Shown: in pieces, positions 27,401-30,400 of the stretch | Position numbering within the stretch: the stretch's first letter is position 1 | How the letters are laid out: every line of letters begins with the position of its first letter | The notes under the pieces: generated by a model | What the model was told of the DNA's origin: nothing | The model's database searches: none | What the model saw: only the letters and a program-made list of their open reading frames with translations | Program-made: the position numbers and the translations under genes | Source: Antedon mediterranea | Lineage: Eukaryota > Echinodermata > Crinoidea > Comatulida > Antedonidae | Length of the DNA stretch: 64,000 bases | NCBI RefSeq assembly: GCF_964355755.1 | Contig: NC_092670.1 | Location: 1,637,001 to 1,701,000, forward strand | Direction: 5' to 3'

Positions 27401-30400
27401 GTAACCAACTTACATGATTAAAGAACAAAGGCTGTATGGGCCAATTAATTAACTGATTAATTTTGGGTAAAGCTAAATAATTTTTGTTTTCACAAAGTTT
27501 TCTTGTGAAACAGTCACCAGTCATTTATACTCACAATCCACATGCCGTCAAATTCCACCTGGTCATGGAAGTTCCTTGCCCAATTTTCCCACCATTTGAC
27601 AGTTGCAGGATTGAAGAAATCTGGAAAAGCTGTTTTTCCTGGCCATACCTGCAAGTTAGATGTTTTATTGTGTTTCTGTAATTTTTGTATAACAAATTGT
27701 ACAACAGCAATTTAAAAACATACAGAACCAATAATTTGTTTGCCTTAGATCAAACTAAAAGTTTGTGTTATATACTTACAGAACCAATGATTGGTTTGCC
27801 TTGGTCGTCTTTCACAAACACATCCTTTTTTATTCCATCATCATACGGACCGTAATTGGTGGCAGTGCTAGCAATGCCTGGATCCTAAAAATTAAAAAGA
27901 AAATATAATGTCTCAATCATTAAGTATACAACATAAAACAAATGTTTAATAAATAATTTTTATGAAAATATATATTTATATTTACGATACTGAAAATGAA
28001 CAAGCAAATGGTGCAGCACTAATACAATAAGTTTAGGCAAAACTTAAAATTGATTAACAAATATAAAAAAAATGAAATGTTTGTTAATGTTAGAAGCATT
28101 TCAAAAATATTCTACTACGATTATTGAAAAGAAGTTCTACTGCAAGTAATGAGAATGCTAAGTATTAATTACTTTCAATATACAAAATATTAAATTAGAT
28201 ATTGTATTATTAGTAAAATTATTTCAATAAATGCAGTATAGAATTCAATGAATTTAGCATTGCATTTACTGCAGTAAAACCACAGTAAAATACCTTTGAA
28301 ATGATATATAGTATTCAATGGAATAAAATGGTTGCTTAGTGATAACGTACAACAATAGGTATATAATGCTGTTTATGCTTATGAAGGTTTATGAGCAGCT
28401 GGGTCAAAGGTTGGACCCAAGTCGTATTCACAGTAAAGTCTTTCCTTCCCTCTGAATACTCTATATCATTCCATTGGGTATCCTAAGAGATGAAGTGAAG
28501 AAAAAGGTAAAATAAATGACACAAAATAACAATGTGGAACAGCTAAAAAGTTGAGAAGACACATGTGCCTGTGTGGAATGACAGGTTTTGAAGTATCTCA
28601 ACTTTTAATGGCCTTTCCACATTTATATGTGAAGAACAGTACACAGTAAGCACAGAGTCAGCCTAAGATATTTTTAATTGGTAATTTGGAATGTCTAAAG
28701 CAGCCATTGGTCTAGTTTGTCACATGACCTGTGCAAACTTTATACCATTCATCACCTTTGACCTCTACCTACAATAATCATCATATAATGTTGCTTGTGC
28801 TGATGCAGGTCAGCGGGAACTGACGGAAGCACGTTGAAATGTGTTTTATCTAACGTCCAATCACGTGTCTGATCCATATAGTCTATATCATTCCACTGGG
28901 TGTCCTGAAGAAATTGATTGCATTAAAAATATAGTAACATTTCAGCTAATAATGTCTCACAGATTGCCTCTAACATTTTTTTTTTTTTAAACCTTCTAAA
29001 AGGTTAATTTTTAGTATTTTATCTTGAATGAAAGAAAGCAAACCAAGTTAACCTGAGGGATTCCTGCTGCCCTCATCTTCTTCACTACATTTAGCGTGTT
29101 TTCTGCTGACCCATAACCCCATCGGCACAAGTGGAATCCAAGCCCCCAATAAGGAGGCATGTATGAACGACCTATGACCTCGGTATATTGCTGGATCACG
29201 GCATCTGGCTTGGGGCCAAGAAAGATGTAGAGATCTAGAATACCACCAATTGTCCGGAATGTTACAGCTGGAGTTGGTTGAAGCATAACCTCTGAAAAAC
29301 AACAATTGAAAGATTTATTGAGAAAAATACAAGTAATGATAAAAAATCTAATGCACACTAGAAATCATAAAAACACTTGGCTGCCAGTTAAATTCCTGGC
29401 TGTGTAAAGACAATACAAATTCAAATACAACAGATATTATAAACGTATAATAATATACATAATTATGTTAATATATTTCATTTATTATTGCAGAAGTATT
29501 AGAAATAAAATTTATTTCATTTTATTTTATTCAGTTGACAACTAACAGCGATAAAACCGCCACTAACAGGTTGAATCTAAACATATCGAACTATAATAAT
29601 ACATTCAAATAAGCAACAATAACATAAACAAAGATTGGAATATTAAAGAGATTTAACATTGTTACCCTTAAATACATTTAAACTATCATAAAATAAATCA
29701 ATATCCAAACAAGTAACAAAGCACACTATTAAAATTACCCATTGCATTGCTGTTTAAAAGAAAGACTCCATGAGCGTTGCCAGAATTGTCCATATTTAAA
29801 TAAAATGGATGTGAACCATAAAGATTGTTACCACTCTGAAAAGGGATCAAATTCAAGATGAGCATGCCAACCGATTATATTAAAAAGCTATGTTAATAAC
29901 AACTTCTACTTACGGTATCAATTACAATTGATTTTTGGTATTTATTGCAACGTTTACTGACTCCAACATACAATGACAACTTCTGTATAATCAGTAAATG
30001 TTTATTGAACACTTTAACATAACATTGTTTCAACTCAACATGAAGCACCAACACTTCAACAGTTCTCTACAGGTCAAGAATTGCACGCCAATCGTGTACA
30101 GTAACCACCAGGAACACACAGAAATTATACTTACATCAGGTGGCATGTCTCGCGCCCAGAAAACAAAACGCTTCCAGGTGACATCATGAGCAAGTTTATC
30201 CTGATGTTCTCCGAGTCCGTAGATATTCTTAGAGGTCAACGATGAAGATATCTGAATAAACTGGTCAGCAAATATTAAAGGACTCAAACTGGTATCAAAC
30301 CTAGAGGATATTGAAAATGAAAATGTTTATTTTAATTTCTTTTATATAAAATGTTCTTCAAATAACAAATATACATATAGAAAATATTAAACAATGCTCA

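What the first reader, a model, noticed from the sequence alone, without database searches (positions are those of the whole stretch)
28351..28904. Two same-size, mutually exclusive-looking exons in the acid alpha-glucosidase gene
Two 132-bp segments, both open, both with good splice sites and the same phase, encode alternative versions of one GH31 barrel segment. They share DTQWNDI and HKQHY but differ beside the active site ([12 protein letters not shown] versus [12 protein letters not shown]) and in the last strand before DPGI (YMMII versus YIPIV). From knowledge of human GAA, the Asp of WND is a substrate contact and is kept, while the neighbours change; Glu in this motif is seen in glucosidase II-type enzymes. 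Inference: one gene may make two lysosomal glucosidases with different substrate or pH preference.
Basis: partly seen in the sequence, partly recalled or inferred. Interest (0 to 1): 0.85.

Follow-up and report, generated by a model that had tools for sequence, protein, structure and literature searches.

The report
Duplicated alternative exon in echinoderm α-glucosidase
In an echinoderm, the gene for the glycogen-digesting enzyme that is faulty in human Pompe disease carries two anciently diverged versions of one exon from its catalytic barrel, so splicing could probably make two forms of the enzyme, although no RNA has been examined.

Summary
On the minus strand (31980-24497) lies an intact acid α-glucosidase-like GH31 gene. 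Two adjacent 132-bp exons, 7A (28904-28773) and 7B (28482-28351), encode alternative β2-α2-β3 segments of the catalytic barrel. Both are open, phase 0/0, with GT-AG sites; either gives an 889-aa protein. They match human GAA exon 8 (c.1195-1326, also 132 bp), and three paralogues here keep that exon in single copy. 7A is canonical. 7B is its tandem duplicate: 45% aa and 56% nt identical, its best genome match after itself 7A, faster evolving, with coding signs. So 7B is a long-kept exon and the pair most likely splice mutually exclusively; no RNA evidence was available, and nothing in frame or spacing enforces exclusivity. Human first-shell residues D404 and I441 are kept in both, so the catalytic pocket should be similar. 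7B changes the otherwise constant DIDYM motif and two positions with variants in Pompe patients (M408, M440); altered or weakened activity are both possible. The kind (tandem-duplicated alternative exons) is well known; no report in GAA was found in the library searched. The host is probably an echinoderm (bindin gene).

The parts
24497..31980 (-). GAA-like GH31 α-glucosidase gene, start codon to stop codon; 18 exons in each isoform, one of them 7A or 7B; 889 aa
   Evidence: Hand-built model, GT-AG at all introns, open throughout. Pfam: trefoil, GH31 N-terminal, barrel, C-terminal. PDB match to human GAA 988 bits, to MGAM N-lobe 848 bits.
29053..29291 (-). Upstream exon 6 (ends ...AAGIPQ|), common donor CAG|GTTAAC
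28773..28904 (-). Exon 7A, 132 bp, canonical: [44 protein letters not shown]
28483..28772 (-). Intron between 7A and 7B, 290 nt, U2-type
   Evidence: too long for simple steric exclusion; no pairing signal
28351..28482 (-). Exon 7B, 132 bp, divergent tandem copy: [44 protein letters not shown]
27780..27884 (-). Downstream exon 8 (starts |DPGIAST...), common acceptor
31821..31980 (-). Exon 1: start codon, hydrophobic leader (probable signal peptide), start of trefoil domain
   Evidence: signal peptide by inspection, not predicted with a program

Best explanation
An ancestral GAA exon (human exon 8) was tandemly duplicated in the line leading to this animal, probably after its split from vertebrates. 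Both copies were kept and are alternative exons of one gene: each mature mRNA takes 7A or 7B, giving two 889-aa α-glucosidases that differ only in the β2-α2-β3 element of the catalytic barrel. 7A gives the standard enzyme. 7B gives a variant with the same first-shell sugar contacts but an altered wall behind them. Shown here: the exon pair, its homology, open frames, splice sites, coding signs and conservation of the ancestral exon. Inferred: expression of 7B, exclusivity, and any functional difference.
For: Equal length, phase, splice sites and homology, which are the published preconditions for mutually exclusive exons; on the Drosophila X chromosome only 0.56% of other exons share them (PMC3228551). 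Each copy is the other's closest relative in the genome. The exon is single-copy in paralogues L014, L015 and L016 with identical 132-bp phase-0 borders, and matches human exon 8, c.1195-1326 (PMC6852536). Coding signs in 7B. In a 44-residue tree 7A and 7B group together apart from human GAA and the rest (93% ultrafast bootstrap), with 7B's branch 0.71 against 0.26 for 7A. D404 and I441 equivalents are kept in both (PMC5653652). Including both copies would insert a second β-α-β unit into a closed barrel, so a working enzyme needs exactly one (inference).
Against: No RNA data. 132 is a multiple of three, so joint inclusion or skipping stays in frame and would not be removed by nonsense-mediated decay. 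No known exclusivity device was found: 290-nt intron, no U12-type sites, no intron pairing beyond shuffles. 7B's donor is the weakest scored in the gene (2.7; 7A 3.4). 7B departs from a motif kept in nearly all other GH31 sequences compared here. No related echinoderm genome could be searched.
Confidence: 0.7

Rival explanations
1. 7B is a dying exon: functional until recently, now rarely or never spliced in.
For: Weakest donor of the gene, higher divergence, loss of DIDYM and of hydrophobic M440.
Against: No stop, indel or splice-site loss at 56% nucleotide identity; strong polypyrimidine acceptor (90% pyrimidine over the 20 bases before the acceptor triplet); codon-position bias.
Confidence: 0.15
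2. Both exons are used but not exclusively: 7B is a cassette or is included together with 7A.
For: All combinations are in frame; no exclusivity device found.
Against: Joint inclusion duplicates β2-α2-β3 inside a closed (β/α)8 barrel. Constitutive neighbours with these features are rare in Drosophila (PMC3228551).
Confidence: 0.1
3. Alternative splicing is real, but the 7B isoform is a weak or inactive enzyme, so splicing lowers or redirects activity instead of giving a second specificity. This is a variant of the best explanation, and its score overlaps with it.
For: 7B replaces positions equivalent to human M408 (M to S) and M440 (M to P); M408V and M440del are reported in Pompe patients as potentially less severe alleles (PMC13160774). 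Eight of eight prokaryotic relatives keep DIDYM or DIDYQ.
Against: D404 and I441 equivalents are kept. Paralogue L014 also has P at the M440 position. Twenty-four amino acid differences between the copies make single-site comparison with human uncertain.
Confidence: 0.3
4. Artefact: assembly error, collapsed tandem genes, or a second gene's exon.
For: None found.
Against: The copies differ at 44% of bases, so they are not haplotypes. Profile scan finds no further copy of this exon in the window (next hit 8 bits).
Confidence: 0.03

Closest known systems
Human GAA (lysosomal acid α-glucosidase) exon 8
   Same: Same 132-bp exon, codons 399-442, same barrel segment; 7A is 22/44 and 7B 16/44 identical to it
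   Different: Human has one copy of the exon (my knowledge); here there are two
Tandem-duplicated mutually exclusive exons (e.g. Drosophila and human sets, PMC3228551, PMC5740500)
   Same: Neighbouring, equal length, same phase, compatible splice sites, homologous, flanked by further exons
   Different: No junction reads here; the pair sits in a lysosomal-type hydrolase's catalytic barrel
Neutral α-glucosidase GANAB (glucosidase II)
   Same: Glu after DI in the β2 motif (GANAB motif from memory); the 7B version scores about 10 bits better than 7A against it
   Different: Rest of the gene is GAA/MGAM type with a trefoil domain; 7B itself is closest to 7A

Membership tests
Mutually exclusive spliced exons (criteria of PMC3228551 and PMC5740500) | Neighbouring internal exons of similar length | tested here: met
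   132 and 132 bp, adjacent, internal
Mutually exclusive spliced exons (criteria of PMC3228551 and PMC5740500) | Same reading frame and compatible splice sites | tested here: met
   Phase 0/0, GT-AG
Mutually exclusive spliced exons (criteria of PMC3228551 and PMC5740500) | Sequence homology | tested here: met
   45% identity, mutual best genome hits
Mutually exclusive spliced exons (criteria of PMC3228551 and PMC5740500) | Each transcript contains exactly one; junction reads bridge the other and none join them | not testable with these tools
   No transcript data available
Mutually exclusive spliced exons (criteria of PMC3228551 and PMC5740500) | A mechanism of exclusivity (steric, U2/U12 mix, frame/NMD, competing RNA pairing) | tested here: inconclusive
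   First three excluded by spacing, site type and length; pairing not above shuffles in this one sequence
GH31 acid α-glucosidase (GAA) | Trefoil plus GH31 N-terminal, barrel and C-terminal domains | tested here: met
GH31 acid α-glucosidase (GAA) | Catalytic nucleophile (WIDMNE), acid/base Asp (HWxGD), WND and I441 contacts | tested here: met
   [19 protein letters not shown] and the I441 equivalent present in both isoforms (human residues)
GH31 acid α-glucosidase (GAA) | Lysosomal delivery and acid optimum | not testable with these tools
   Only a leader peptide is visible
GH31 acid α-glucosidase (GAA) | One-to-one orthology with vertebrate GAA | tested here: inconclusive
   Best PDB match among single domains is GAA; several GAA/MGAM-like paralogues exist; no full-length tree built

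The most novel reading that the evidence does not exclude
A splicing switch exchanges one β-α-β unit of a lysosomal glycosidase's catalytic barrel, so one gene makes two α-glucosidases of different linkage or pH preference, regulated by tissue or stage and conserved across echinoderms.
Probability: 0.3. Interest if true: 0.6.

Novelty: new member of a known kind. Interest (0 to 1): 0.4.

Why it matters
If both isoforms are made and active, nature has tested a multi-residue replacement of a barrel element in the enzyme lost in Pompe disease. That would give a tolerated-substitution map for GAA exon 8 and a case of enzyme properties tuned by exon choice instead of gene duplication, in a genome that also has gene-duplicated relatives for comparison. 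If 7B is inactive, it would be a case of activity control by splicing.

Tried and rejected
(1) Docking/selector RNA pairing among the three introns: none beyond shuffles, though a single sequence and a duplex program that spans whole introns make this a weak test. (2) U12 or steric exclusion: no U12 sites, 290-nt spacing. (3) RBFOX or ESRP motifs near the exons: none; scattered YCAY and UCUU motifs were not tested for enrichment. (4) A third exon copy, or second copies in paralogues: none. (5) Processed retrocopies that would show which exon is joined: exon searches returned none. (6) Borrowing of 7B from another GH31 gene: rejected, since its nearest relative is 7A. (7) Literature for α-glucosidase mutually exclusive exons: no report found.

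Full report
Observation. The minus strand was read and a gene model built by hand. The gene runs 31980-24497, with GT-AG at every intron, and with either 7A or 7B gives an uninterrupted 889-aa protein. Pfam finds a trefoil domain, the GH31 N-terminal domain, the TIM barrel and the C-terminal domain. The best PDB match covering one GH31 unit is human lysosomal α-glucosidase (988 bits; MGAM N-lobe 848).

The exon pair. 7A and 7B are each 132 bp, phase 0/0, 56% identical in DNA and 20/44 in protein. The other two frames of both contain stops. Against the whole genome each is the other's best match; next come single paralogous exons. Pfam's GH31 barrel model recognises each alone at the same profile positions, 39-82. 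Further copies are absent from the window and from the paralogous genes examined.

Age and constraint. Three paralogues (L014, L015, L016) keep the exon in single copy with the same 132-bp borders. Human GAA exon 8 has the same limits: splice variants c.1195-2 and c.1327-2 bracket it (PMC6852536). The exon is therefore ancestral and its doubling is specific to this gene among those examined. A small tree of the 44 residues groups 7A with 7B (93% ultrafast bootstrap) outside human GAA, and 7B's branch is about 2.7 times as long as 7A's. Forty-four residues give limited power. Synonymous divergence is saturated. Mismatches fall 18/12/28 over codon positions (by hand, chi-square about 6.8, 2 d.f., p about 0.03). 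Simulated neutral decay to the same divergence retained 10.9 +/- 2.1 identical residues against 20 observed and stayed stop-free in 7%. The in-frame codon score of 7B lies within the range of other exons of the gene and above 98.7% of intron windows, which overlap and so are not independent. Together these say that 7B was under coding selection for most of its history.

What differs. By human numbering (D399 = residue 1) the exon spans β2, α2 and β3 of the barrel (family knowledge). The crystal structure places D404 (hydrogen bond) and I441 (hydrophobic) of this exon at the -1 subsite (PMC5653652); both equivalents are the same residue in 7A and 7B. 7B differs from human and 7A at D406 (E), M408 (S), D409 (E) and M440 (P). 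DIDYM or DIDYQ is present in all eight prokaryotic relatives aligned, in MGAM and in three paralogues; human GAA has DLDYM. M408V and M440del occur in Pompe patients (PMC13160774). The P at the M440 position also occurs in paralogue L014 (FIPIL). The 7B version scores about 10 bits better than 7A against GANAB and about 13 worse against GAA. Thus a changed second shell is likely; a changed specificity is not shown.

Splicing. Acceptors of 7A and 7B are ordinary; both donors lack the exonic G and score low (3.4 and 2.7; decoy GT median -2.0), as alternative exons often do. The 290-nt spacing, U2-type sites and length divisible by three exclude steric, U2/U12 and frame-based enforcement. Pairing between introns was no better than in shuffles. 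If exclusivity exists, it would need trans-acting factors or structures that only comparison among species would reveal.

Host. A bindin match (E 2.3e-28) points to an echinoderm, since bindin is known from echinoderms (family knowledge). The assembly is 354 Mb in 18 contigs. No animal relatives were available to search, which is the main limit of this report.

Verdict. A real, old, apparently functional tandem exon duplication in an acid α-glucosidase-like gene, with all sequence preconditions of mutually exclusive exons met and the defining RNA test outstanding. The kind is well known; the place is unusual.

Noticed in passing
L018 (G000:C5:1255601-1265500), around 4131-3958 minus: A divergent GAA/MGAM-like paralogue next to L014 has lost the DxQWND-type motif in the equivalent exon (FYSGLDYMDRYRSFTYD) while keeping a nucleophile-like motif (IDYNEPSN); possible change of function.
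   Followed up: partly
30898-31047: Ten perfect copies of a 15-bp unit (GATCATGATGATTAT) inside an intron of the GAA gene.
   Followed up: no
6061-7858 and 61540-63123: Two long, nearly perfect minisatellites: 52-bp unit x 34.6 (96%) and 51-bp unit x 31 (98%).
   Followed up: no
5164-5650: 18-bp tandem array, 27 copies, divisible by three and open in several frames on both strands; probably a chance ORF of the repeat.
   Followed up: no
3-5179, minus: Exons with several PKD domains and a below-cut-off WSC match; resembles polycystin/egg-jelly-receptor type genes.
   Followed up: partly
50304-55673, plus: Exons of a sulfatase gene (Pfam Sulfatase at 53173-53472).
   Followed up: no
G000:C6:8632822-8804206: Large tandem cluster of 5S rRNA genes.
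   Followed up: no
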